A program made the position numbers and the translations under genes. Positions 3,989-17,956 of a stretch of 64,000 nt of DNA are shown here, piece by piece. The DNA is taken from contig NZ_JARUMJ010000001.1 in NCBI RefSeq assembly GCF_036898465.1, positions 5,146,001 through 5,210,000 of the forward strand. Reading direction: 5' to 3'. The stretch comes from Streptomyces sp. B21-105 (GTDB lineage Bacteria > Actinomycetota > Actinomycetes > Streptomycetales > Streptomycetaceae). Each line of letters opens with the position of its first letter. Positions within the stretch are counted from its first letter, which is position 1. The notes under the pieces were generated by a model. That model was not told the DNA's origin. It was given only the letters and a program-made list of their open reading frames with translations, and did no database searches.

Positions 3989-4810
3989 TTATTGGAAGAA
4001 GAGTGCAAAGGGGTCTGCCGGGCGACCGCCGTGCACGACGCATTTATCGATCTCCAACTCTCTGTCGGTCAGAGACGTCGCAAATTCTTTGGAATCCCGC
4101 CACTCGGCCTTGATTTGACGCCCGAAAGAGAGGCCTACTACCGATGCGGCGCCAGCCTGTTTAAGTGCATATGCGGCGCTGGCCATGGATCCGCCGGTCG
4201 TGAATGTGTCATCAAATAATAGAACTCGTTTACCTCTAACCGTAGGGCTGGCAGTAAACAAGCCTGGCACTATCTTCTCGCGCCGAGTACCCGCCTTTGA
4301 GGCGTCATTCTTAACCAGAGCCCCCCTGCTCCATTCGTCGGAGAAGTCTCGCACGTGCTTGATGAGGGCATCTAAGTGACTTTGTCCGCTCCGTGTAGAA
4401 GAGTGCGAGGGCATAGCTACGCGCAGGTCAAATGGTCCGCCGTAAAACCCTTCTATGCACGCCAGGTGTCGTTCCATAAATGTCCAGAGGAGGGACCCTA
4501 ACGGGAGTCTTAGCCAGACGTTAGAGGGCTCATTCTTGGCGTTCCACAGGACTCCCTCAAGGCCAGTATGGAGGGAATAACAAATCGGGACAAAGCCGTC
4601 GAGAACGGACGAGAACGTGTGTCGACAGTTGTAGCAGTGCTGGTAGGGCGCGCCTTGGGGGCCTATGGGCGTTGGAGTTCGACACAAGAAGCAAGTGCCA
4701 GCGTCGTCAGCCAAGACTGAAGGCGCAACATGCTGCTCGCGCAGCCAGTGCACCCAGTTCGCAGTACTCCAATTCCGGTCGTCGGGACGCACGAAACGGC
4801 GGTAGGACAA
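3989..4810 (-). CDS. ComF-like phosphoribosyltransferase with zinc ribbon
   Basis: 273 aa. An N-terminal zinc ribbon is visible (CFLC near residue 40 and CYNC near residue 58, spaced about 16 residues). The PRPP-binding loop VLLFDDTFTTGGS (about residues 193-205) is the type I phosphoribosyltransferase signature, with the two Asp and TTGGS intact. The combination is that of ComF/amidophosphoribosyltransferase-like proteins. Base composition is clearly lower in GC than the surroundings, suggesting separate acquisition. It is on the same strand as the DprA-like gene, 66 bp downstream of it. ComF and DprA are both linked to DNA uptake in competent bacteria, but Streptomyces is not known for that, so another role such as mobile-element defence is possible. 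Confidence 0.8.
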   Translation of the reverse strand: MSYRRFVRPDDRNWSTANWVHWLREQHVAPSVLADDAGTCFLCRTPTPIGPQGAPYQHCYNCRHTFSSVLDGFVPICYSLHTGLEGVLWNAKNEPSNVWLRLPLGSLLWTFMERHLACIEGFYGGPFDLRVAMPSHSSTRSGQSHLDALIKHVRDFSDEWSRGALVKNDASKAGTRREKIVPGLFTASPTVRGKRVLLFDDTFTTGGSMASAAYALKQAGAASVVGLSFGRQIKAEWRDSKEFATSLTDRELEIDKCVVHGGRPADPFALFFQ

Positions 4811-4876
4811 CCTTGACCCCCTGCTTGCAGCTCGGACCCCAAGCAGAGGTTAATCCTACTGTCCGACAGCAGGCAA

Positions 4877-5827
4877 TCACTTGGCGTCAAATAGGAGCTG
4901 CGTTGGGCCCGAAACCTCCTCCGCTCGAAGAGGGCTCGCCAAGGTTTCGATCATCTGTTCGGTATTCGCCACGGGGGTTGCTCGCTGAGCCTCGACCATC
5001 TTGCGGGCCCATGGCTGCTGATCCACTAGCGACTGGAGCAACAGCACATGCCGGCCTTGCTCGGCCGCCACACGTGCCTGCATCTTGGCGCCGGAAGTTC
5101 CTGACGCCTCGATTACGACGCTTCCCAGGCTGATGCCAGACGTCACATGGTTCCTCCGGGGGAAGGTGTCCCGGCCGGGAGATCGAGAAGGCCAAAACTG
5201 GGAAACGATCAGGCCTTGATCGGCGATTTCTTCCGCGAGATCAAAGTTTTCCCTGGGGTAGCACTTTGTGATACCCGTACCAATCACTGCGATAGTCCGA
5301 CGGTCGAAATGCAGTGCCGTTCGATGCGCCTCCGTGTCAACGCCGCGAGCGAGACCCGACGAGATGGTGTATCCCGCTTCACTCAATTCACGTGCCGCCT
5401 TGCGGGCGCGCGAGAGCCCCAACTCCGTAGCGTCACGGGTACCTACGACTGCGACTGAGCGTGCGTCGGCTTGGTGATCGAGCTTCCCACGGTAGAACAG
5501 GAACGGGGGAAGATCCGCCACGGTCCTTAGATTCTCGGGGTACTCAGGGTCCAACACCGTGACCAGACTCGCTCCGGCGCTGTCAGCCTGCTCCAGCTCG
5601 CTTTGAACGCGAGCGAAGTGTTCACTCAGGGCACGTTCCCTTAGTCCCTCGCGGAGCAGGGGTAGGGCCTTGCGGGCTGCGGCGGACTCTTCGGGGATGA
5701 AGCCCTCACACAGGCTGTCGAGATGCCCCTTCAGCGCGCACCGGGCAAGTAGTGCCCAATCGACACTCTTGCCCTCCATGCGGAGCGAGCAAAGCGCTAA
5801 CAAGCGCATACGTACGTCATCGATCAT
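4877..5827 (-). CDS. dprA: DprA/Smf-like DNA-processing protein
   Basis: 316 aa. Central Rossmann fold of the DprA family: YPENLRTVADLPPFLFYRG, RSVAVVGTRDAT, GLSRARKAARELSEAGYTISSGLARGVDTEAHRTAL, TIAVIGTGITKCYPREN, GLIVSQFWPSRSPGRDTFPRRNHVTSGIS and VVIEASGTSGAKMQARVAAEQGRHVLL. The SGLARGVDTEAH and FPRRN motifs are the diagnostic ones. An extra helical N-terminal region of about 85 residues precedes the fold. The C-terminal winged helix of chromosomal DprA appears absent. This is therefore an accessory paralogue, probably acting with the ComF-like gene downstream on the same strand. Confidence 0.85.
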   Translation of the reverse strand: MIDDVRMRLLALCSLRMEGKSVDWALLARCALKGHLDSLCEGFIPEESAAARKALPLLREGLRERALSEHFARVQSELEQADSAGASLVTVLDPEYPENLRTVADLPPFLFYRGKLDHQADARSVAVVGTRDATELGLSRARKAARELSEAGYTISSGLARGVDTEAHRTALHFDRRTIAVIGTGITKCYPRENFDLAEEIADQGLIVSQFWPSRSPGRDTFPRRNHVTSGISLGSVVIEASGTSGAKMQARVAAEQGRHVLLLQSLVDQQPWARKMVEAQRATPVANTEQMIETLASPLRAEEVSGPTQLLFDAK

Positions 5828-6846
5828 CTCTGTCTCCTTCTACTCAAAGATCACTGTTCGAAGGATCGATGACTGAAAGTCTAGAGGTCAGCCACATCGT
5901 GCTGCTACAGATACGCACTCGGTGAATGGGCGAGATGCAGAGACGTAGCACGTGACCTGCACAGTCGGGGAAAAATCGACTGCGACACATCATGGAAGGC
6001 CACTCGAACGTGCCCCTCCGCCCGCCAGGGACATTGCGAGTACCGCCCCAGGTCGCCGTTCTGGCGACAACAGACCTTGACGGCAACGTCAGCGCGCGAG
6101 CGCATCCTTGGGTACTCATCGACGTGCTGCCCAACCCCTGTCAGGTGGCTGGCGAGCAGGCCGGCTGCTCCACGGGATGAACTTGTAGAGCGAAGGTCGT
6201 CAGTTCGAGTCCGGCAGGGGGCTCTTCGATCTAGCTGAGACAACGCCTCCGCGACCTTCCAACCGCGGGGGCGTGACGGCACCCGCCTATCGACGTCGCT
6301 TGAGCAGACGATCCATCTGGCCCACAGCCTCCGGCCGGTGCTCGTCGCTCGCCGAGACGTGGCGACACGGGGATGCTGAGGCTTCCAGATTGAATCGCTT
6401 GTGAGTTACATCACCCACTCGGCGCCCATATTCTCCACGGGGTGATGTGCACCGGGTAAGTCGCGAGTCGCCCTCTGGGGGCCGGGGGTGCTCCTGGGCA
6501 AGCAGCTCTGCGGTCCCGCGAAGCCCAGCAGCCTTTGGTGCAGTAGTCGTTGCGAGGATGCACGCCCTGCTCGCGGGCAGTTTGCCGCCGTACCGTGCTA
6601 GGCATTGCACTGCAATGCCTAGCTGAGGCTGGGTGACATATTCTCCCTGGTTAGGGAGATGTTCAGGCAACCTAAATTTGCCATTCGAGTTCGCGTTAGT
6701 GAATTGATAACGCCCTGGGGGCTGGCCTGCCGCCCCGCTCGCTCGGTCTTTGATGGGCCACACTGTGCCTGTGCCCGCCCCCGCTCACGGTTGGCCCCAG
6801 TGCGGAGGCGGGCTTGACCACATCCCATGTGCGAGAAGGGTCGCCA
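5828..6846. other. About 1 kb without a convincing gene
   Basis: Several short frames exist on both strands but none has family-like sequence or a good ribosome-binding site with matching codon bias. The stretch contains the tRNA-3'-end-like relic near 6183-6224 annotated separately, and the 3-nt-rich AT patches around 6640-6710 that may be promoter DNA. It probably represents decayed element-junction sequence. Confidence 0.5.
6183..6224 (+). other. tRNA 3'-end-like relic, candidate attachment site
   Basis: The sequence ending in AGTTCGAGTCCGGCAGGGGG followed by CTC has the layout of a T-arm (7-nt loop TTCGAGT) and a 3' acceptor strand AGGGGGC, as in actinomycete tRNAs with a GCCCCCT 5' end such as some tRNA-Thr. 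The T-stem has one mismatch and no matching 5' half is present, so it is not a functional tRNA. AICEs integrate into tRNA 3' ends, so this could be the right boundary of the element at 1-6 kb. Confidence 0.4.
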
Positions 6847-7131
6847 ATGACGTTACCGAGTGAATCCAGGTTTCTCAGTTTCGAGCGGCATGCTGCTGCC
6901 GCAGAGACTTCACAGACACCCCGTGGCCGAGTCCGGTTCAGGTGGCGTACCTCCGTCATCCTCGGCATGGCTGCGCTGGGCGCGGTGATCGCCTTCCTTG
7001 TGTTGCTCATGCCTGGTCTGGCAGTGCCGCTGGGCGTGGCGGCGGGAGTGGTCGCGGCCGTGGCTGCCATCGCGCAATGGCTGTGGCCGGGCGGGCCGGC
7101 GGAGCATCATGGTGCGGAAGAGGGGGCGTGA
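6847..7131 (+). CDS. Small two-helix membrane protein, unknown function
   Basis: 94 aa from an ATG at 6847 with AGAAGGG seven bases upstream; a longer start at 6814 exists but lacks a site. The first 35 residues are soluble. They are followed by one hydrophobic span (SVILGMAALGAVIAFLVLLM) and a second (LAVPLGVAAGVVAAVAAIAQWL), then an acidic tail ending GAEEGA. No family recognised. Its position just left of the tRNA-like attachment copy suggests it is cargo or the last gene of an element. Confidence 0.55.
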   Translation: MTLPSESRFLSFERHAAAAETSQTPRGRVRFRWRTSVILGMAALGAVIAFLVLLMPGLAVPLGVAAGVVAAVAAIAQWLWPGGPAEHHGAEEGA

Positions 7132-7287
7132 GCTAGGTCGCCCGGAGGGCACTCAGTCTCAGTTGCAGTCTCAGTTGCCGCACTTTCCAGAGTGATCCGC
7201 CAGTGTCCACCACCGTCCATGAAGCCTTGTGATCAGGTAAGGCGTGGCGATGGTGGACGCCCGCGGACGCCCCTGGATCAAGACCGG

Positions 7288-7336
7288 ACAGCTCGTAATG
7301 CGTAGGTCTCGGGTTCGAATCCCGAAGGCGGCTCCG
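7288..7336 (+). other. tRNA-Thr(CGU)-like 3' half, attachment-site copy 1
   Basis: From 7288 the sequence reads like an anticodon loop (CTCGTAA, anticodon CGT), variable region, T-arm (TCGGG TTCGAAT CCCGA, perfect stem) and 3' acceptor strand AGGCGGC. The anticodon 5' stem strand does not pair and no acceptor 5' strand (GCCGCCT) lies upstream at tRNA distance, so this is only the 3' part. The 33 bases at 7304-7336 recur with one change at 11254-11286. Such 3' tRNA duplications mark integrative-element borders. Confidence 0.65.
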
Positions 7337-7338
7337 AG

Positions 7339-7376
7339 AAACCCCAGGACTCACTCGCCGTGACCTGGGGTTTTTT
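7339..7376 (+). terminator. Rho-independent terminator after attachment copy 1
   Basis: Perfect 10-bp stem AAACCCCAGG / CCTGGGGTTT (7339-7348 with 7364-7373), a 15-nt loop and a T-run. It directly follows the tRNA-like sequence, as expected downstream of a tRNA gene. Confidence 0.8.
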
Positions 7377-7461
7377 CATGCCCGGGGCATGCCGAGCCGC
7401 ACGACGGGGATGCCGTGGAAGTGCTTGCGTGAGCGATGCGTGAGCGGAGCGGCTCGCCGAC

Positions 7462-7510
7462 CTACTTCTTGGGCTTCACCCGCTTGGCCTTCACGACGGC
7501 CTTGGGGCCT
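7462..7510 (-). pseudogene. Relic of tyrosine integrase C-terminal tail
   Basis: On the minus strand these bases translate as a Lys-rich tail ending KAKRVKPKK followed by a stop. The integrase relic at 11410 ends KKSKRKKPKK. The roughly 90 bases between attachment copy and this tail also resemble the equivalent stretch near 11330-11405 (shared GTGAGCGATG, GTGAGCGGAG). Only the tail of the gene survives, showing that a second att-int module once stood here. Confidence 0.6.
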
Positions 7511-7928
7511 GCTCGCTCCGAGCGCAGGACATCTCCGCATGTGCGCTGCGCGGGCGGAGCGAGGCGTACTGACACCTGCGGCGGTGGCCATCTCATCTCA
7601 CCCGCTGCTTGTCGTGGTGATCTCTCTTAGCGCGGGGCAGCCGTCGGCCCGAAGCGATTCTCGGCGGGCTGGTCGTCGCGTATCGGGCAGAACCTCGGGC
7701 TCTTATATATATGTTCCGGCTCTCATGCCCCATGAGAGCGCCTACATTAATAACTCCCTTGTGGTGTGGGTTGGTTGTGGTGACAGTGGTTGTCATCCGC
7801 CACGCCCCTCTTGTCATCGGAGCATTGATGCGCCTCATTCACTGCCTGCCCCTCAGGGGGCGTTCGTGCCGTAGCTCGCAGACGTCGGCCCGGTGGTTCC
7901 GGGCAACCGTGTTCCACGGAGGCCGAGG
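7511..7928. other. Gap upstream of the three-gene cassette
   Basis: No supported gene. The right part probably contains the cassette promoter: there is an AT-rich patch (TCTTATATATATG near 7700, and CATTAATAACTCC near 7744) unusual in this GC-rich window. A strong ribosome-binding site GGAGG at 7918-7922 leads into the first cassette gene. Confidence 0.4.
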
Positions 7929-9188
7929 GTGAGCGTCGGGGGTGTGGGCATTCCACGGCTGCAGGACCTCGCGTACATCGAGGTCGCCATCGGCAACGTT
8001 GCTCAGGGCGCAACCTTCGAGCAGGTGCGTCGTGCTCTCGTCGACCGAGCTGCTGCGGTGGCGCGTGAGGGGGATACGGACGGCTCGTACTCTGCCCGCA
8101 AGTGGGAGCTAGCGCGGTCGGACACCAGGAAGCACGTCCACAACACCGTCGACGTCCTCAAGGAGCTGATGCGTCTCGGATGGGTCGAGAAGCACATCCT
8201 TCCCTCCAGTCCCAACTCCGCATACGCGCATGCCGATTCGGTGTTCACTCTCACCCCTGCGGGGGAGAGATGGGCGGCGCTTGTCGCCGCCGACGGTCGC
8301 GCCGCGTACAACGCGCTCACTGGCGTACTGCTCAACACGCATCCGCAATTCGAGGGTTTTCTGCGCCTCCTGGGCGCCCGACCGGACAGCAGCACCACTC
8401 ACTTGACCATTCCCCTCTTGAGGTTCAGTGCGTCGGGCTACGGCACTAACGCGGCGTACCTTGACGCGTTCGTCGCGTTCGCTACGGACGCGGCAGCTCA
8501 GGGCACGCTCGGCTGGACTGCGGAGCCCGAGGCCATCAGTGAGAGCGTCCGCGACTATGTCCGCCGCTTCGAGGAGCGGGCGCGCGCCCGGGAGAAGGAG
8601 ATCAGCCGAAAGCAGTTCGCCACCACGTGCGAAGAGGCCATGGCCCGGTTCGTATTTGGCGCGGCCGGCTGTCCTTTGGACTACATCAGCCTCGAGCTGC
8701 TACGCAGGTGGACTCGGTTTCTGGGGTTGGCCAACTTCAGCTACTACGCACCAGGACCTTCAGCGATGCGGCTCTGGCCCACCGCCGTGGTGACGGGTAG
8801 CGGCGATGCCGTCGCGATCAGCCGGCGAGTCGGCAAGGAGGTGCGTCGGACAGCCCTCGACGCCGTCTGGGCGATCTGGCGCGAGCAAAGGGCCGACGCA
8901 GCCGGTGGCATGTACCTGCCCGTCTGGCAGCTGCGTGCGGCCGTTTGCTGGAAGCAACGGATCAGCGACGACGAGTTCGATCTGGCGTTGCGGGAAGCTC
9001 TCGCAGGCGAGCACCCCGGCCTTGGTTTGAGTATTCACCTCGATCAGGCGTCGCTGAGGGTCGCCCCTGCTTCGACCAAGCCCTTGATCATTCCCAGTGC
9101 GAGTGGGCTCCGACGTGTGTTCAACGTGATCAGCGTTGCACAGGAACCCACTGTCCACGCCACTTCAACCACCACCCAGGAGACCTGA
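7929..9188 (+). CDS. Cassette gene 1: winged-helix-like protein, unknown function
   Basis: 419 aa from a GTG at 7929, chosen because GGAGG lies six bases upstream; a start at 7893 is possible. Residues about 10-110 look like a winged helix: an early helix (LAYIEVAIGNVAQGATFEQVRRALVD) and then HNTVDVLKELMRLGWVEKH with FTLTPAGERWAAL as the wing. The middle is helical and charged (RDYVRRFEERARAREKEISRKQFATTCEEAMARFVF). The C-terminal third, with LPVWQLRAAVCWKQRISDDEFDLALREAL, resembles a second winged helix. No nuclease, protease or NTPase motif is visible. It is 4 bp from the ATPase gene and surely co-transcribed with it. Confidence 0.6.
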   Translation: MSVGGVGIPRLQDLAYIEVAIGNVAQGATFEQVRRALVDRAAAVAREGDTDGSYSARKWELARSDTRKHVHNTVDVLKELMRLGWVEKHILPSSPNSAYAHADSVFTLTPAGERWAALVAADGRAAYNALTGVLLNTHPQFEGFLRLLGARPDSSTTHLTIPLLRFSASGYGTNAAYLDAFVAFATDAAAQGTLGWTAEPEAISESVRDYVRRFEERARAREKEISRKQFATTCEEAMARFVFGAAGCPLDYISLELLRRWTRFLGLANFSYYAPGPSAMRLWPTAVVTGSGDAVAISRRVGKEVRRTALDAVWAIWREQRADAAGGMYLPVWQLRAAVCWKQRISDDEFDLALREALAGEHPGLGLSIHLDQASLRVAPASTKPLIIPSASGLRRVFNVISVAQEPTVHATSTTTQET

Positions 9189-9192
9189 CACG

Positions 9193-10524
9193 ATGACCGC
9201 CTCAACCCGTAGCGCGGGCCCCGTCTGGCTTAAGAAGCAATGGGGACTGCGTCAAAACCCCTTCCCGACCACGGGCATCGCCCGGTTGGGGGGCGCCGAC
9301 GTGCGAGAGAACGGACTCCTCTACGAGCCGGACGTCAACGCGGACAAATTCGAGGAGGCCGTCGAGAAATTTGTGCTTGGGGCAGCATTTTCCGGTCTGC
9401 GGTTCGGTTACCTGTGGTCGACGGGTACCGGCCCGGGCGACTCTGACGCCCGTGGGTTCGGCAAGTCTGTGCTCATGCAGCACCTCACATGGAGTCTCAA
9501 CGAGGACTTCGGCCGTGCTGCGTATTTGAGCTGCGGCCTCGATGAGGACGATGCCTCCGAGGAACCGATCTGCGGGTTGCTGACGAGCTTCGACACTGCC
9601 CAGATCCGTTCCCTGAGTGCCGCTCTGTTCACGGCCGTCGAGTACGCGACGGATTTCCGTGCCGCTAATACAAGCCTTACGCTCGTCCAGCGCCTACGTG
9701 AGGCACTTGTCGCACGGACCGCCACCGACGATCCGCAGAGCCTGGCGAAGATCGTGGTCGAGCAGCATCGAGATCTTCGGGGCCGGACTCTGGGGCCGCC
9801 CGACGACAAGCTCATCCTGGCTTTGTGCGACGCGGACTCGACCGTTGCCCAGGACTACCTGGACAAGGTCAAGCCTGCTTCGCGGACCCGGAACGGCGCT
9901 GTGTATCTCGCGACGTTCCTCCTCTTCGCCGCGGCAGCAGGCATGAAGCACGTCCTGCTCTGCTGCGACCAGCTGGAGGACCTCGCGAGCACCACTACGG
10001 CGAAGGCCAAGCGTGATCTCGAAACCGAACGGTTCCGCGACATCATCCTCGAAACGCTGCCTATGGCCGACATGCTCAACATCGTGGTAACCATGCATCC
10101 TCGAGCAGCACTAACCATCGGCACGGCCTGGGAACTCGCGGACCTGCCGACGTTCGAGATCTCGGAGGCCAACAAGCACCGGATCGTGGTCCTGCCAGCG
10201 CTTCGTGATCTGGACTCGGCAGTCAAGCTCCTTTCTAAGTATCTCGCTGCTGCTCGCAAAAAAGACGATCGGCCGCGAGGGGACGTGTACCCGTTCACGT
10301 CGGAGGCGGTAGATGCGTTGTTCAGGCGATCGAATCGCAAGCCGCGCGACGTACTACGCAAGGCACAGGGCCTGATCGAGGCTGCGTCGGGTGACAACCT
10401 AGTGATCATCGACGAGGAGGCCGTCACCCGTTACTTGGACGCGGTCGGTCCCGACACCGAAGAGGACATCGGCCCCGTCCTGGCGAGTCCGGTGACTACG
10501 TCCCTGGACTGGAGCGCAGGGTGA
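9193..10524 (+). CDS. Cassette gene 2: ExeA/Orc-like P-loop ATPase
   Basis: 443 aa from an ATG at 9193 preceded by CAGGAGA. The N-terminus LKKQWGLRQNPFPTTGIARL recalls the FGLRENPF head of ExeA/TniB-like AAA ATPases. A Walker A-like loop ARGFGKSVLMQ is near residues 85-95, with Asp-rich insertion before it. A Walker B-like strand KHVLLCCDQLEDL is near 250-262. The C-terminal part has an Orc/Cdc6-like sensor 2 (FRRSNRKPRDVLRKAQGLIEAA, near 375-396) in a helical lid. It likely hydrolyses ATP to remodel a protein or DNA complex with its two neighbours. The Walker A first Gly is replaced, so activity should be tested. Confidence 0.75.
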   Translation: MTASTRSAGPVWLKKQWGLRQNPFPTTGIARLGGADVRENGLLYEPDVNADKFEEAVEKFVLGAAFSGLRFGYLWSTGTGPGDSDARGFGKSVLMQHLTWSLNEDFGRAAYLSCGLDEDDASEEPICGLLTSFDTAQIRSLSAALFTAVEYATDFRAANTSLTLVQRLREALVARTATDDPQSLAKIVVEQHRDLRGRTLGPPDDKLILALCDADSTVAQDYLDKVKPASRTRNGAVYLATFLLFAAAAGMKHVLLCCDQLEDLASTTTAKAKRDLETERFRDIILETLPMADMLNIVVTMHPRAALTIGTAWELADLPTFEISEANKHRIVVLPALRDLDSAVKLLSKYLAAARKKDDRPRGDVYPFTSEAVDALFRRSNRKPRDVLRKAQGLIEAASGDNLVIIDEEAVTRYLDAVGPDTEEDIGPVLASPVTTSLDWSAG

Positions 10525-10555
10525 CCTCCTTAGCTTCGTGTTATGGAGAGTCGGG

Positions 10556-11248
10556 ATGACGGCCGATGCCTGTGATGCCTGCCCCCTTTGCGGCGCCGCC
10601 CTGTCGTCATGGGAAAGCAGGCGTTGCGGCTGCGGGGGGCCACGCTGGGAGAGCCATGCAGAGGTCATGTACGCGATTGCCTGTTCGGTCCGATCACCCC
10701 TGCACGTACGTGACTTCGTTCGCCTTGCCCACAGCGATTACGGACACAAAATCGGTGTCCCCAGTGCCAATGCGGTGCTTTCGCCTGACCGGCGCTTCTG
10801 TTGGGCCGGTCAAGGAACCTACTCCTTGTACCGCCACGGCCCCCTGCCGGGCCCTCGAAATTTGGAAGGGGCGAGTCGGCTGGTTCTGCTCGCAGCCAAC
10901 GAGCCCATGACAGCGGATGCGCTGGACTACTGCCTGAAGCAACTCGGATATCGGTACAACGTGGCTTCTTTGAAGAACGCGATCAGAAGCTCCAAGTGGA
11001 TCACGTGGCAGCAGGATGGCCGGTGGGCGCATTCGCTGGGAGAAGCCGCCGAGGCCGAGCTGCGGCGCGAGGTTCCCGTTGTTCCAGACAGCCGTCACGC
11101 CGCGTGGGCGGCCATGCGAGATGTGCTGACCAGGGATGTGCGAGGTTTCATAACCCAGCGAGCGGAGCGGCTTCGCAACCTCGGCAGTCCCCACCGATTC
11201 GGTCTCAATTGGGACGAGGAACCAGGAGCGATGATGCTGCCGATGTGA
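10556..11248 (+). CDS. Cassette gene 3: zinc-ribbon plus HARE-HTH-like protein
   Basis: 230 aa from an ATG at 10556 with GGAGAG five bases upstream. It opens with a zinc ribbon (CDACPLCG near residue 5, then CGCGG near 25). Residues about 40-90 fit a HARE-HTH/winged-helix pattern: a helix, LHVRDFVRLAHSDYGHKIG, VPSANAVLSPDRRFCWAGQGTYSLYRHG. A second winged helix follows (PMTADALDYCLKQLGYRYNVASLKNAIRSSKWITWQQDGRW). HARE-HTH domains are associated with recognition of modified or foreign DNA. The gene ends 5 bp before attachment copy 2, so it is the last gene of the inserted cassette. Confidence 0.65.
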   Translation: MTADACDACPLCGAALSSWESRRCGCGGPRWESHAEVMYAIACSVRSPLHVRDFVRLAHSDYGHKIGVPSANAVLSPDRRFCWAGQGTYSLYRHGPLPGPRNLEGASRLVLLAANEPMTADALDYCLKQLGYRYNVASLKNAIRSSKWITWQQDGRWAHSLGEAAEAELRREVPVVPDSRHAAWAAMRDVLTRDVRGFITQRAERLRNLGSPHRFGLNWDEEPGAMMLPM

Positions 11249-11253
11249 TGCCG

Positions 11254-11286
11254 AGGTCTCGGGTTCGAATCCCGAGGGCGGCTCCG
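11254..11286 (+). repeat. Attachment-site copy 2 (tRNA 3' end)
   Basis: 33 bases matching 7304-7336 with one A-to-G change in the acceptor part. They encode a T-arm with perfect stem (TCGGG TTCGAAT CCCGA) and a 3' acceptor strand. No tRNA body lies upstream; instead the last cassette gene ends here. With copy 1 it brackets a 4.0-kb segment, as attL and attR do for an integrated element. Confidence 0.7.
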
Positions 11287-11287
11287 G

Positions 11288-11322
11288 AAAAGGCCAGGTC
11301 ACAGCCCGTGACCTGGCCTTTT
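11288..11322 (+). terminator. Terminator after attachment copy 2
   Basis: Perfect 15-bp inverted repeat AAAAGGCCAGGTCAC (11288-11302) with GTGACCTGGCCTTTT (11308-11322), 5-nt loop, ending in T-run. It terminates the cassette and could also stop minus-strand integrase transcription. Confidence 0.85.
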
Positions 11323-11409
11323 GTGTTGCTCGGGGCATGGCGCGTCACACGGCCGGGGTGCCGCGAGATGGCTTGAGTGAGCGATGGGTGAGCGGAGTGG
11401 TCCGGTGCC

Positions 11410-12059
11410 CTACTTCTTGGGCTTCTTCCGCTTGCTCTTCTTATTGGCCCTGGCCTCGGCTTTCGCCTTGTTCTTGGCCTTCTTGGTGGCCTGACGGGCC
11501 TCCTCCGCCTGGGTCTTCCTCTGAAGCGGGACCAGCTTGGCGGTGGCCTCGGCCGCGTTCTTGCCGACCTGTGGCAGGACGCTCTGGTAAATGTCCCGCG
11601 TGATTCGGGTGTCGCTGTGCCCGAGTGTGTCCGACACGATCTTCACGTCGATGCCGGCGGCGAGCATGAGCGTGGCCGCCCCGTGCCGGAGGTCGTGCAG
11701 CCGGATCGGCGGGAGCCCGGAGGCGGCGACGAGGCGCTCGAAGAGGTCGGTCACCTTGCCGGGGTGCAGCCAGGATCCGTCTTCCTGGGTGAAGACCATG
11801 CCGGTCTCGACCCAGGCCGTTCCCCACTCCTCGCGGTCCGCGTCCTGTTGTTCGCGGTGCCGCTTCAGGACGTTGACGGTGTCGTCGTCGAGCGCGACCA
11901 CGCGGAAGCCGCTGTCCGTCTTGGGCTCGGAGGTCTCGACCTCCCACCCGTCCTGGACGAGCTGGGCGGAGACCGTCAGGGAGTGGTCGTCGAGGTTGGT
12001 CTCCGACCAGGGCTGCGCGCATGCCTCGCCCCGCCGCAGACCGCGGACTCCGCGCCGAC
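11410..12059 (-). pseudogene. Tyrosine integrase, C-terminal half only
   Basis: About 215 residues of a phage/AICE-type tyrosine recombinase: GLRRGEACAQPWSE, then SEPKTDSGFRVVALDDDTV, GLPPIRLHDLRHGAATLMLAAG, VKIVSDTLGHSDTRITRDIYQSV. The catalytic RHDLRHGAA (His-x-x-Arg), the second His (LGHS) and the Tyr (DIYQSV) are present, and the first Arg (RRGEA) too. The N-terminal DNA-binding domains are gone: upstream of about 12060 the sequence becomes an RHS gene read on the same strand. The tail is very Lys-rich. The gene points at attachment copy 2, the normal int-att order. It cannot be functional alone. Confidence 0.85.
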
Positions 12060-13573
12060 CTTGCAGTATATGTCGAACGGTACGTCCGGCCAGTTCTTCG
12101 CGTGGTCCTCGTCGAACGTCGCGCAGTCGGTCAGGCAGCGTTCGCTGACGTCGAAGGACACCTGGCCCATGGCCTTGGCCGAGTACACCGACGTCGACCG
12201 CAGACCGTAGTCGATGTGGTCGAGGTAGCCGGCACGGATGTACGGCGTGGCGGTGGAGTCGCCCGTGGTTTCCGAGACGTTGCGGCCGTAGTTGTTGCTC
12301 TCGGTCTTCCAGTAGTAGGCCGTGGCGTTGCCGTGCGGGCCGACGACGTAGTCGAGCTGCCAGCGCCAGGCCTGCTGGCACCAGCCGCTCGCGAACGAAG
12401 CGGCGTAACAGGGCTCACCGGCCTGGTTGCCGAAGACAGGCGTGGTCCACGTCGAGTTGGTCTCCGGGTCGTCGGCCGCCGTGCCGTGATCGCTCCAGCC
12501 CGGGAGCTGGTTGAGTCCGAAGAAGTACTGGGTGCCGTCGGTCGTGGTGATCTTCCAGTGCTCGCCCTACCGTCGACGTCGGTGGTGCCTTGGTCGCCGT
12601 TGGCGGCGCCCGTGAGCTTCTCGAAAGGGCGTTGTCGTTGCACCAGCACAGGTCGCCGACCCGGCTGTTGTCCGTCGCGTCGGTCTTGTCGTCGTTGCAG
12701 GACTTGTAGCGGCGCTGGACGAAGCCCGGCTCCCAGGACCAGCCGTCGCCGATCCAGGAGGCCTGGTTGTTCGAGGCGGCTGTCAGCCCGTCCACCGACT
12801 CCGACGAGTAGTCGAGCGAGATCTTCGGTTCCATGTTGCCGGGAACGTCCGGCACGTCGATCGGGTACGACCAGGCGAAGGCCCCAGTTGACTTGCGGGC
12901 GCTCCACGAGCCCGCTGCCTTTGGCGTGGCCTTATAGTCACCCCCTGGGCCCTCGTTGCCCGCCGTCGCGGCCAGCACCGTCGCGTTCGTCACTGCCACC
13001 GTGGCCGTGAGCGTTGAGGACAGCACATCGTTGTGAGTCGCGAGCGGCTTCGGCGTCCGACACGGCGCCTTCTGCGGCGTCGTGAGTGCACAGGCGGGCA
13101 GTTGCACGAGCCGGAGCCGAGACGCCCAGTCGCCTCCGTAGGCCTTCCGGAAGGAGGCGTAGTCCACCTGAACTCTGGCCGGGACAGCCTTCGCGGTACC
13201 GTCGCGTCGGCCGACCGACAGCAGAAGGCCCTCTATGCCCGCCCTGCGGGCCGCGTCCCGTCCGGCGACCTTACCCCCATCTTCTCTTCGCTGGAGTGTC
13301 CGTGCCCTCGGCCGGTGCAAGAGACACTGGCAGTCCGCCTGCCCGGGCCGGCTTCGCTGGCGCGACTTCCCTCACCACTTTTCCGGCAGCCAGCTCCACC
13401 TCAGCTAAACCTGCAGCCGGCCAAGCCGCCTCAGGAACGCCTTTCCAGGCATTCTTGGCGGCCATATCAGGCTTTTTGGATCCGCCGATTTGCACCTTTT
13501 CCACCGGAACAGTCTTGGGCTGTTTCACTCGCGGAAGTGGGGCTCTTTCTTCCGCGTAGGCAGTCATATGCAT
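12060..13573 (-). pseudogene. RHS-repeat wall protein, truncated and frameshifted
   Basis: Read in three frames, the minus strand encodes the N-terminal quarter of a protein closely related to the intact RHS gene at 26012-32383. Matching blocks are VKQPKTVPVEKVQIGGSKK (13.5 kb), FRKAYGGDWASRLRLVQLPACALTTPQK, SIDYSSESVDGLTAASNNQ-type sequence, then GWCQQAWRWQLDYVV and ending at NWPDVPFDIYCK (about 12060). Frameshifts lie near 13.3 and 12.57 kb. The signal peptide is missing. The 3' end is joined to the integrase relic. It is a dead gene fragment that may still recombine with the intact paralogue. Confidence 0.8.
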
Positions 13574-14111
13574 CGCCCAGGACTACTCGCTAGAGTCCGG
13601 CCGACCTGTCGAATAGCGAGAGGATGCTTGTGCGTCTCGTAAGACCCCGCTACGGTACGGTGAGAAAGAGATGGCCAGCCCGGTCATTGTCTCTCACTTT
13701 GATTTGTGCGATTTCCGCCTCTAGCCTCCTTGGCCTGTCCACCGGCGCGAGCGCAGTAGTACCCGCCGTCGCTTCGGGCAACGTCTCTGACGGCTCGAAG
13801 AGCGATGAGGAATACGCTCTCGAGCAGGCTGCGGCCACGGGCCAGCCCTACGAACTGCTCTCTGCGCGGACCGAGTCATCCGACACGTGGGCGCTGCCTG
13901 ACGGCAGTTGGTCGGTCAAGCGGTACGGGACACCGGTGCGCGTGCTGCGCGGCGGCGCTTGGGTGCCCACCGACCCCACGTTGGTCTTTGCTGCGGACGG
14001 CAGCGTCGTCCCGAAGGCCTCGTCCGTGGCCGTGACCTTCTCCGGTGGGGGAAGCGGTCCCCTGCTGTCCGGGGTGAAGGACGGTCGCACTCTGACCCTC
14101 ACCTGGCCTAA

Positions 14112-14964
14112 GACGTCATCTCATTTGGCCGACTCGGTAGGCTGTGGCTCGTGGGGATCGTTGAGCGGCTGGTGCCGGATGAGTTGTGGGAGTTGTTCCA
14201 GCGAGTGGTGCCGGAGGCGCCCTCGCGGCCTCAAGGCGGTGGCCGGCGCCGTCATGGCGATCGTGAGGTTCTTGCCGCGATCGTGTTCGTGGCCACGTCA
14301 GGCTGTACCTGGCAGCAGCTGCCGTCCGCGTCATTCGGGCCGTCGGGAGCGACGGCCCATCGACGCTTTGCCGAGTGGTCGAAGGCCCGCGTCTGGGCCA
14401 AGCTCCACCGCCTGGTCCTCGACGAGCTCGGCGTTCGTGGCGAATTGGACTGGTCCCGGTGTGCGATCGACTCGGTGAACATGCGGGCCTTGAAAAGGGG
14501 GACATGACAGGTCCGAATCCTGTCGACAGGGGCAAGTACGGGTCGAAGATCCACCTCATCACCGAGCGGACCGGTCTGCCCCTCTCCGTCGGAATCTCAG
14601 GGGCGAACCTGCACGACAGCCAGGCCCTGATCCCCCTGGTGAAGGGCATACCGCCCATCCGCTCCCGCCGCGGGCGTCGGCGACGCAGGCCGGACAAGCT
14701 CCACGCCGACAAAGGCTACGACTACGCCCACCTGCGGCGATGGTTATCCAGCCGAGGCATCCGGCATCGCATCGCCCGTAAGGGCGTCGAGACTTCGCAA
14801 CGACTCGGCCGCCACCGCTGGACCATCGAACGCACCATGGCCTGGCTCGCCGGCTGCCGGCGCTTGCACCGACGCTACGAGCGCAAAGCCAGCCACTTCC
14901 TCGCCTTTACCAGCATCGCCTGCACCCTCATCTGCTACCGCAGGCTCACCAAATGAGATGGTTT
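14112..14964 (+). mobile_element. IS5-family insertion sequence (about 850 bp)
   Basis: Terminal inverted repeats share the core CATCTCATTTGG (left 14117-14128; right inverted 14950-14961). The octamer CTAAGACG flanks the element at 14108-14115 and 14965-14972; the true duplication may be 4-8 bp, since the IS5 group prefers YTAR and CTAA fits. Deleting one repeat plus the element (857 bp) rejoins the host frame perfectly, so the insertion is recent and clean. Confidence 0.85.
14151..14956 (+). CDS. IS5-family transposase, two frames with a -1 shift
   Basis: The first frame (14151-14507, GTG start) encodes 118 aa with the helix-turn-helix and first catalytic Asp ([17 protein letters not shown]). 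The second frame carries [30 protein letters not shown], the second Asp ([13 protein letters not shown]) and the Glu motif ([25 protein letters not shown]). Between them lies AAAAGGGGGA (14493-14502); a -1 slip there joins MRALKRG to [11 protein letters not shown]. This is the usual expression mode for this group. All DDE residues are present, so the element may be active. Confidence 0.85.
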
Positions 14965-17956
14965 CTAAGACGCTTGCCAAGCCCACCCTGGTCGAGAACG
15001 TGGCTACCTATGCCGAGGTGCTGCCCGGGGTGGACCTTCAGCTGAAGGCGGAGGTGGAGGGCTTCTCGCAGTTGCTGGTCGTCAAGACGGCCGAGGCGGC
15101 GCGGAATCCGGAACTGGCGTCGCTGAAGTACAAGCTGGACACGGTCGGGCTGAACGTCTCTACGGACCCCGAGACGGGGAGTGTCACGGCTGTCAATCCG
15201 GCCGGCCAGACCGTGTTCACCAGCCCTACCCCGCTCATGTGGGACTCCACGACCGCCACCTCGGGCGCCGCGGCCGCCACGTCGGGCGCTCCGACCGCCC
15301 GGGCTCTCGCAGCAGCTGGGACGGAGGAGATGGCGCCCGGAGACGTCTTCGAGCCGCAGGCCGGGGCGCAGGACGCGCAGATGACTACGACGGTCACGGA
15401 CTCCACGCTGGAGATCAAGCCCGACCAGGAGCTGCTGACCGGGGCGGATACGCAGTACCCGGTCTACATCGATCCCTCGTGGGCGTGGGGGAAGAGGCAG
15501 AACTGGACGCGCGTCTACAAGAAGTACCCGAACACCTCCTATTGGAACACTAAGGAGGTCGTGCGCGTCGGGTATGAGAACGAGACCTATGGGCTGTCGC
15601 GATCCTTCTTCCAGCTCGATACGTCCAACATCAGGGGCGCTCAGGTCAAGTCGTCGGTCTTCCGGATCAAGAACACCTGGTCGTGGTCCTGCCAGGCCCG
15701 TCCCGTGGAGCTGTGGCATGTCGGTGCCATCTCCTCGAAGACCACCTGGAACCGACAGCCCGCCAAGTACTCCGGGATCGCCACGGTGAACGACGCCAAG
15801 GGCTGGAGCAAGGACTGCGCCGCCGGCAACCTGGAGTTCGACACCACAAGCCTGGTCCGCGAGGCGGCGCTGAAGAAGTGGTCGAGCGTCAACCTCGGGA
15901 TGTACGCCTCCGATGAGACGGATACCTTCGGCTGGAAAAAGTTTGACGCCAAAACCGCGGTCCTGGAGACCAAGTACAACAACCCGCCCAAGACTCCGAC
16001 GGGCCTGGGCACGAACCCCAGGACAGCCTGCCTCACCGGCGGCGTGATCGGCAACACGCGCGTCAGCCTCTTCGCGAAGTACGACGACGTGGACGCCGGC
16101 AACCTCACCGCCGAGTTCCAGGTCTTCAAGGCCGGCAGCAGCACGCCGACGGTGACCCAGACCGTCCCCGCTACCAAGGGAAAGATCTCCACGCTGGCCG
16201 TCCCCGATGCGAGCCTGCCCACGGGTGACTACACGTGGAAGACCCGGGCCAAGGACCAGGACGGCGCCTACTCCGGCTGGTCGACCATGTGCAAGTTCTC
16301 CGTCGACCGCACCCGCCCGAGCAAGCCGCCCGTCATCAGCTCCCCGCAGTTCCCCGACGGCAAACTGGGCTGGCCGGCCGACACGAGCAAGGCACGCACC
16401 ACCGGCACCTTCACCTTCATCCCGAACGGCGTCACCGACGTGCGCCGGTACTACTACTACACGGACTGGGACCCGAAGCTGCTGGACGCACCGGTGACGA
16501 CGGACGACCCGGACACACCGGCTAATGAAGCCGCTGCGTTCGTACAGCTGACGCCGCCCGGCGCCGGCCCGCACTTCGTCTACGCCTACAGTGCGGACGC
16601 CGCAGGCAATCTCTCCGACACCGCGGCCTACCTCTTCTACGCCAACCGGTCCGCCGAGCGGGACGGCCCCAACGACCTGAACGGTGACGGCAACAGCGAC
16701 TTCTGGAGTCTGGACGCCAACGATGCACTGCTCACCTACGCCGGGCAGGGAAACGCGCAGTTCTCCGCCGCGGCCAACGGCGGCATATCGATCGTCAACG
16801 GCCAGGTCACGTCCCGGGGAGACTGGAACCAAGACGGGTACAACGATCTCACCTCGTTCGAATACGACGAGGTGGACAAGAGGAACAAGCTCTGGGTCTA
16901 CCGCAACAACGGCCGCGGCGCCGTGTCCCTCGACGACTACACAGAACTCACCGTTTCCTGTCCGGTGAAGAATCCTGACCTCGGATGCGACTTCGGCGAC
17001 GAGTGGACCGGCGACGATCACTGGTACAACGCCGAACAGATCGTCGCTTCGGGTGACATCAACGGTGACAGTCAGCCGGACCTGCTGGTCAAGCAGGGCA
17101 AGCAGCTGTGGGCGTATTACGGCAATCGCGCAAGTTACACCCTCGACATCCGCGAGCCTGTTCTCGTGGGCAACGGCGACTGGGACCAGTTCACCATCGT
17201 TGCTCCCGGCGATACCAACGGCGACTCCCTGCCGGACCTCTGGCTCCGCCAAAACACGACGGGCGACATCTACCGCGCCTATGGCAAGAAGGGAAGCGAC
17301 GGAAACGTCGACCCGACCACCTGGGGCGCAGTCAGCGAACGCGTGAAAATCGGTTCCGGCGTCAAGGCTGCGGACTTCCCTACACTGGGCTCCTCGGGAG
17401 ACCTCAACGGTGACGGAATCGCCGACCTGTGGGCGCGGAATTCCGACAATTCCGTGCAGGGATGGCTCGGCAAGGTACCGGGCGCGGACGGCATCGCATT
17501 CCAGCCGGCGTTCCCCATCAGCCGGACCCAGCCGACCGGGACGCCGGGCGGCACGCCGGGCAAGCCGGACATGAACGGCGACACCCTCGGTGACATGGTC
17601 GTCCACACGCCCGACGGGGCGCTGGCGATTCGCAGGAAGCAGCCGACCGGGCCGTACTTCGACACGGGCACCTACGTGAGCTGGGGCTGGCAGCAGTTCC
17701 TGGGCAAGTCCGGCCAGGGCAAGCTGTACTTCGCCGACATCGACGCCGACGGTACCAAGGACCTCATCTCCCACGGCACGGATGGCAACATCATCGTCCG
17801 CCGTAACAACCGGACGGGGACCGGGTTCGACACGGGCACCTTGATGAGCGCCCATTGGTCCAACTTCCTGGGGCAGCCTGGTCAGGGTCTGCTGTACTTC
17901 GCGGATGTCACCGGCGACGGCAAGGCCGACATGCTGGTCCACACGCCCGATGGCAA

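What the first reader, a model, noticed from the sequence alone, without database searches (positions are those of the whole stretch)
7284..11322. Three-gene cassette (winged helix, ExeA/Orc-like ATPase, Zn-ribbon HARE-HTH) bounded by tRNA-derived repeats
Three tightly packed, co-directional genes fill a 4-kb segment flanked by two copies of a tRNA 3' end. None has a recognisable replication, transfer or metabolic role. The middle one is a P-loop ATPase with ExeA/TniB-like head and Orc-like sensor 2; the third couples a zinc ribbon to a HARE-HTH-like domain, a module tied to modified or foreign DNA; the first has winged helices and no known catalytic site. An ATPase plus DNA-sensing proteins as sole cargo of an integrated element is what an undescribed anti-phage system could look like. 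The defence role is inference.
Basis: partly seen in the sequence, partly recalled or inferred. Interest (0 to 1): 0.8.

Follow-up and report, generated by a model that had tools for sequence, protein, structure and literature searches.

The report
Mobile islet carrying Orc-ATPase defence genes
A four-kilobase stretch of a Streptomyces chromosome, bounded by two copies of a tRNA-gene end and carrying just three genes that stay together in distantly related bacteria, is likely a hitch-hiking defence cassette that is predicted to recognise foreign DNA with a winged-helix protein and an Orc/Cdc6-type ATPase, and that appears to have lost the nuclease some of its relatives keep.

The parts
7304..7334 (+). 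att1: copy of tRNA-Thr(CGT) 3' end (homology to the tRNA begins at 7292, near the anticodon); left border of the islet
   Evidence: 31/31 match; homology start; alignment of att sites
7351..7515 (-). left arm with relic of the 3' end of a tyrosine-integrase gene
   Evidence: DNA 77.8% over 198 bp to the left arm of the neighbouring int-bearing element in L010, E 8e-41; in sister L003 a 22-aa integrase relic, 68%, E 2.8e-5; in the window itself only 17 aa, 53%, E 1.3, not significant at protein level
7929..9188 (+). gene A, 419 aa: predicted multi-winged-helix protein (FokI/SspB-like over residues 2-300, further wHTH at 301-405)
   Evidence: AlphaFold2 pLDDT 92.1; VIA-align; no significant Foldseek match
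9193..10524 (+). gene B, 443 aa: predicted Orc/Cdc6-clade AAA+ ATPase; Walker A ARGFGKS, Walker B CDQLED, sensor-2-like KPRD conserved
   Evidence: alignments; AlphaFold2 pLDDT 85.3; Foldseek and VIA-align. Motif names recalled
10556..11248 (+). gene C, 230 aa: CxxC...CxC zinc-binding motif plus HARE-HTH-like winged-helix region
   Evidence: C9, C12, C24 invariant in 12 of 12 rows; HARE-HTH in 7 of 46 members, best E 0.0034
11254..11284 (+). att2: second copy of the tRNA-Thr 3' end; right border, five bases after the stop codon of C
   Evidence: 30/31 match; att alignment
11285..12047 (-). left arm and truncated tyrosine-integrase gene (3' part, stop at 11410) of the neighbouring IME-like element
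   Evidence: homology to L010, whose integrase is a full 533 aa, stops at 12047; integrase assignment
3989..5827 (-). neighbouring AICE-like element, left of att1: ShosT-like (3989-4810) and ShosA-like (4877-5827) genes; context, not part of the islet
   Evidence: PADLOC ShosA E 4.5e-66, ShosT E 9.5e-10

Best explanation
The islet is a passenger between two tRNA-Thr-derived repeats that is likely moved in cis by a neighbouring element's integrase and carries a likely DNA-targeting defence module, predicted to work with an Orc/Cdc6-type ATPase (B) assembling on DNA under guidance of a FokI/SspB-like winged-helix recogniser (A) and a zinc/HARE-like DNA reader (C). Shown: the gene set, its co-conservation, its borders, a neighbouring element found without it elsewhere, and its near-identity between genomes whose flanks differ. 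Predicted: the folds. Inferred: that A reads a target, that B loads or scans in an ATP-dependent way, that C discriminates modified or foreign DNA, and that the output restricts an invader. In some relatives a PD-(D/E)XK-like nuclease encoded between B and C would cut. The window's lineage lacks it, so here the complex would either recruit a nuclease encoded elsewhere or block replication or expression by binding.
Confidence: 0.6

Rival explanations
1. A-B-C (and D) is an element-maintenance or competitor-exclusion function: an AAA+ DNA-loading complex that keeps the composite element or tells it from rivals at the same tRNA site, rather than general anti-phage defence.
For: Seven of 17 loci with B are tRNA-Thr islets in mobile surroundings; B folds like DNA-loading initiators; other elements use the same tRNA site, in the window genome in tandem with the islet.
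Against: Among the neighbour genes that I read by eye at the other 10 loci I noticed no integrase or transfer gene (not scanned), and the family reaches Acidimicrobiia MAGs, Chloroflexota and Azospirillum. A nuclease-like partner and R-M neighbours fit defence better.
Confidence: 0.2
2. It is a Tn7-like target-selection module without a transposase: B like TnsC, D like TnsA, C (zinc plus HTH) like TnsD/TniQ, A an extra DNA binder.
Against: No TniQ family among those matched by 46 C members, no TnsA family for the D proteins of L012 and L021, no transposase noticed recurring with the genes in the loci read. The islet's ends are tRNA-derived att repeats.
Confidence: 0.1
3. It is a phosphorothioate (Ssp/Dnd) accessory: A as SspB, B as SspC, needing sulfur-modified DNA.
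For: SspB is one of A's long structural matches; the paper pairs SspB with the Orc/Cdc6-clade SspC; two clade-2 loci carry DGQHR-motif proteins (motif seen by eye; TIGR03187 E 0.066 for L007 and none for L009).
Against: DndC (TIGR03183) gives no match in the window's genome and passes the cut-off in 1 of 7 host genomes, G044, about 370 kb from its cassette. This model may miss SspD, which was not searched.
Confidence: 0.05
4. It is a decaying relic: the loss of the nuclease left a non-functional remnant.
For: No nuclease gene in the window's lineage; A is frameshifted in L025, a locus of the other Streptomyces group.
Against: All three frames are open in the window and dN/dS is well under 1 among the nuclease-less tRNA-Thr islets; recent spread between species.
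Confidence: 0.05

Closest known systems
Orc/Cdc6 + DndG-like triple-wHTH + REase mobile neighbourhoods (predicted, PMC10853773; passages read)
   Same: Orc/Cdc6-type ATPase encoded with a protein whose predicted fold resembles FokI/SspB and, in some relatives, with a restriction-type nuclease; mobile setting
   Different: Separate zinc/HARE-like third protein; no ASCH domain noticed in D and no HerA/FtsK gene noticed nearby (neither searched for); nuclease missing in the window's lineage. Whether this family is in that paper's supplement could not be checked
SspB-SspC of the Ssp phosphorothioate system
   Different: no SspA/SspD linkage noticed; DndC not found in the host; extra C and D genes; no sequence-profile match of A to SspB in the PDB
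BREX BrxC/BrxD and DUF499 ATPases
   Same: Orc/Cdc6-type AAA+ fold (BrxC is Foldseek rank 8); HmaC/DUF499 lies beside one relative
   Different: B is a 443-aa stand-alone ATPase; no PglZ, BrxX or helicase in the cassette
CIME (cis-mobilizable element; definition read in PMC5704250)
   Same: att repeats at both ends, no integration or transfer genes, tandem with an integrase-bearing element
   Different: only 3.95 kb, cargo is a single gene module; excision not observed
Tn7 TnsC/TniB with TniQ
   Same: AAA+ fold group, zinc plus HTH partner, PD-(D/E)XK-like partner in some relatives
   Different: no transposase noticed, no TniQ match, tRNA-derived borders

Membership tests
CIME | att sites at both ends | tested here: met
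   31/31 and 30/31 copies of the tRNA-Thr 3' end; 5 of 7 islets have both, L004 and L006 lack a recognisable right copy
[quoted passage not shown]
   only A, B, C intact in the islet; integrase-tail relic in the left arm
CIME | accretion with an integrase-bearing element | tested here: met
   533-aa gene directly right of the islet in 6 of 6 sister loci, called tyrosine recombinase for L010 and DNA-similar in the others; truncated in the window
CIME | excision or cis-mobilization | not testable with these tools
   needs PCR or reads; indirect support from the identity contrast and the islet-free element
Orc/Cdc6-clade AAA+ ATPase (gene B) | Orc/Cdc6 fold | tested here: met
Orc/Cdc6-clade AAA+ ATPase (gene B) | intact Walker A and B | tested here: met
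   R87, G88, G90, K91, D259, Q260, E262 invariant in 52 rows including the distant L021
FokI/SspB/DndG triple-wHTH (gene A) | three wHTH domains in FokI arrangement | tested here: inconclusive
HARE-HTH (gene C) | match to PF05066 | tested here: inconclusive
   7 of 46 members, best E 0.0034; not the window's own C
Dnd phosphorothioate system | DndC gene in the host | tested here: not met
   TIGR03183: no match in G000; over cut-off in 1 of 7 hosts
Ssp phosphorothioate system | SspD-type gene linked to the SspB/SspC pair | not tested
   none noticed by eye; no SspD model was run
Tn7/Tn5053-type transposition | TniQ family partner | tested here: not met
   TniQ is not among the 15 Pfam families matched by any of 46 C members at E up to 1
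Tn7/Tn5053-type transposition | linked DDE transposase | tested here: inconclusive
   none noticed recurring in the genes read by eye; not scanned
known anti-phage system (PADLOC 2023) | match of A, B or C to a listed model | tested here: not met
   no family up to E 1
restriction-type system | linked nuclease of the D type | tested here: not met
   no D match anywhere in the window; present in 4 of 17 loci

The most novel reading that the evidence does not exclude
Nuclease-free restriction on a hitch-hiking islet: an Orc/Cdc6-type ATPase loaded by a FokI-like recogniser and a HARE-like reader silences invading DNA by occupying it, without cutting, after two lineages discarded the ancestral nuclease; at under 4 kb it would be a very small mobile defence unit, spreading as a CIME on other elements' integrases.
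Probability: 0.2. Interest if true: 0.8.

Novelty: new variant of a known kind. Interest (0 to 1): 0.6.

Why it matters
If true, it gives a compact, testable example of an Orc/Cdc6-type ATPase used for immunity rather than replication, with natural nuclease-bearing and nuclease-less versions to compare, and it shows how a single defence module can travel as an integrase-less passenger stacked with other defence-carrying elements (ShosTA-like genes here) at one tRNA gene.

Tried and rejected
Led nowhere: Pfam, PADLOC, NCBIfam and PHROGs scans of A, B, C (only sub-threshold hits); PDB sequence-profile searches of A, B, C, D (nothing credible; the 6xi3 hit of D at E 0.0024 has no stretch passing on its own); Rfam on 6800-12500 (none); tblastn of B against phages (none) and plasmids (one distant Azospirillum record, 28%). 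Whole-model Foldseek of A gave no significant match. DndG and BrxA do not appear in the rows shown; that says nothing either way.

Considered and rejected: autonomous integrative element (no recombinase gene in the islet); TniB/TniQ transposition module; phosphorothioate accessory in this host; spurious third gene (my gene finder missed C in the window, but it is conserved with dN/dS 0.133-0.251). I also considered that the islet is ordinary left-end cargo of the IME-like element; L080/L084 show that element starting directly at the tRNA repeat without it. The neighbour labels MobC-like, Xis-like, DUF3631, AICE-like, IME-like and ParB/DGQHR-like rest largely on reading the proteins by eye and on recall.

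Of the 81 genomes matched I fetched 20 tRNA sites, the window's own and 19 others, taken from the best matches and leaving out G022 and G017 on short contigs. For alignments and models I picked diverse hits: 46 of 120 listed B proteins, 59 of 120 listed A proteins, 35 of 80 C proteins. The tree uses 18 locus proteins only.
Full report
What is there. The window lies in a genome that I take to be a Streptomyces (G000, window at C1:5146001-5210000; the genus is inferred from named relatives). Between two copies of a tRNA-Thr 3' end (7304-7334 and 11254-11284) lie three co-directional genes: A (7929-9188), B (9193-10524) and C (10556-11248). C's stop codon ends five bases before the second repeat. 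No RNA family matches 6800-12500, and no tRNA gene lies in the window.

It is a conserved gene set. B has at least 353 relatives in the protein collection, none with a named function in the 120 listed. Seventeen distinct loci with B at about 49% identity or more were read: the window, L003-L014, L022, L025, L026 and L029. A is next to B in 17 of 17 (frameshifted in L025) and C is present in 15 of 17, missing in L008 and L025. A more distant relative in Azospirillum (L021) has B (28%), A (26%, E 2e-8) and a D-like gene in the order B-A-D. All three genes are under purifying selection. In surveys, B occurs in 6 of 392 Streptomyces genomes and in 3 of 396 genomes drawn across the phylum, the window's own and a partial weak match included.

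A fourth gene. In L005, L012, L013 and L029 a gene D lies between B and C. Its products, with the L021 relative, share an invariant pattern (E32, H63, D66, ExK at 79-81, K89 in L005 numbering) that I read as a PD-(D/E)XK nuclease site (the motif name is recalled, and no family or PDB match confirms it). The B tree places the seven tRNA-Thr islets as one group next to L005 and L029, both of which have D; the simplest reading is that D was lost on the way to the window, and separately in a second Streptomyces group (L007-L009, L011, L025, L026). That second group has its own recurring neighbours: a methyltransferase (6 of 6), a 253-aa protein without a Pfam or PADLOC family (5 of 6) and ParB/DGQHR-like proteins on the other strand (a 335-368-aa family in 5 of 6, a different DGQHR-motif family in L007 and L009) (the ParB/DGQHR label is by eye). 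Supports in that tree are moderate, the root is not fixed, and L012, L013 and L021 are long branches.

Defence context. Of the 10 loci outside tRNA-Thr, six have at least one gene nearby that PADLOC or NCBIfam models recognise as defence-related, among the proteins I chose by eye: L012 (HsdM, HsdS and HsdR directly upstream, below NCBIfam cut-offs, HsdR also PADLOC REase_I E 4e-39; PDC-S02), L013 (HmaC E 6.5e-91, HmaB), L029 (cytosine methylase E 6e-87 to DruM, Vsr, PDC-M33A), L009 (SduA E 2e-150), L007 (HNH) and L025 (HNH, STAND_TPR). L005 and L026 showed none that convinced me in the few proteins scanned; nothing of L008 and L011 was scanned. The only background I measured is SduA: 13 matches in 11 of 101 Streptomyces genomes, so by my arithmetic about 0.0003 for a random 20 kb. 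In the window, ShosTA-like genes lie at 3989-5827 in the neighbouring element; PMC9122126 (passage) reports anti-phage activity of a DprA-PRTase pair and names DprA homologues as antitoxins in shosTA.

Mobility. In L003, L004, L006, L010 and L022 the islet lies just 3' of a tRNA-Thr(CGT) gene, and L014 and the window have the tRNA end only. In six of six of these other loci a 533-aa gene, a tyrosine integrase as tested for L010, lies just right of the islet. In G003 (L080, L084) the tRNA-Thr is followed directly by an element whose first 3.5 kb are 94% identical to the L010 element starting at att2, with no islet between, and which ends at a further tRNA-end copy 19.8 kb on, followed by sequence also found downstream of 5 of 19 other sites. 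None of the 19 other tRNA-Thr sites fetched (of 80 other genomes) has A, B or C within about 9.4 kb. The islet's left arm resembles that element's left arm (77.8% over 198 bp) and in L003 still shows 22 integrase codons, so the islet looks like an element that lost its integrase. Window and L010 are 99.79% identical over 4758 bp from att1 into the integrase gene, while their tRNA flanks are 82.7% identical over 1.76 kb: recent transfer, probably of islet plus neighbour together. In the window genome the complete tRNA-Thr is 14.4 kb to the left; the space holds another element with its own integrase-like gene (465 aa; 29% to the 533-aa integrase over 151 residues). This is the tandem accretion pattern that PMC5704250 describes for CIMEs (passage).

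Verdict. I read the islet as a CIME-like passenger whose sole cargo is a nuclease-less version of an Orc/Cdc6 plus FokI/SspB-type counter-invader module. What is shown stops at gene content, conservation, borders and the identity contrast; folds are predicted; target recognition, ATP-driven loading and restriction are inference. Papers: I read passages only of PMC10853773, PMC12839542, PMC5704250, PMC9122126 and PMC11037411, and search listings otherwise. Searches listed no paper that I recognised as describing this exact gene set (one search listed 25 of 51 papers), within the open-licence library only; PMC10853773 describes the nearest arrangement.

Noticed in passing
window 3989-5827: ShosT/ShosA-like pair (PADLOC E 9.5e-10 and 4.5e-66) in the AICE-like element between tRNA-Thr and the islet: two candidate defence modules stacked at one tRNA gene.
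   Followed up: partly
L007, L008, L009, L011, L025, L026: Second Streptomyces lineage has recurring divergent genes beside A-B: a methyltransferase (6 of 6), a 253-aa protein without family (5 of 6) and ParB/DGQHR-like proteins; a possible larger system.
   Followed up: partly
L021:9800-16005 (Azospirillum brasilense megaplasmid): Distant version in order B-A-D followed by a 912-aa UvrD-like helicase, with transposase-like genes on both sides.
   Followed up: partly
window 14108-14969: Insertion-sequence-like unit (two overlapping transposase-like frames, 21-nt terminal inverted repeats at 81%) inside a large FG-GAP-repeat-type gene region; labels by eye.
   Followed up: no
window 12047: Homology to the integrase-bearing element ends abruptly inside its integrase gene, so the window's copy of that neighbour is truncated and would not mobilise the islet itself.
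   Followed up: partly
L029:11971-18533: Directly downstream of A-B-D-C: PDC-M33A-like 642-aa protein, cytosine methylase and Vsr-like nuclease, a candidate linked R-M-like cluster.
   Followed up: partly
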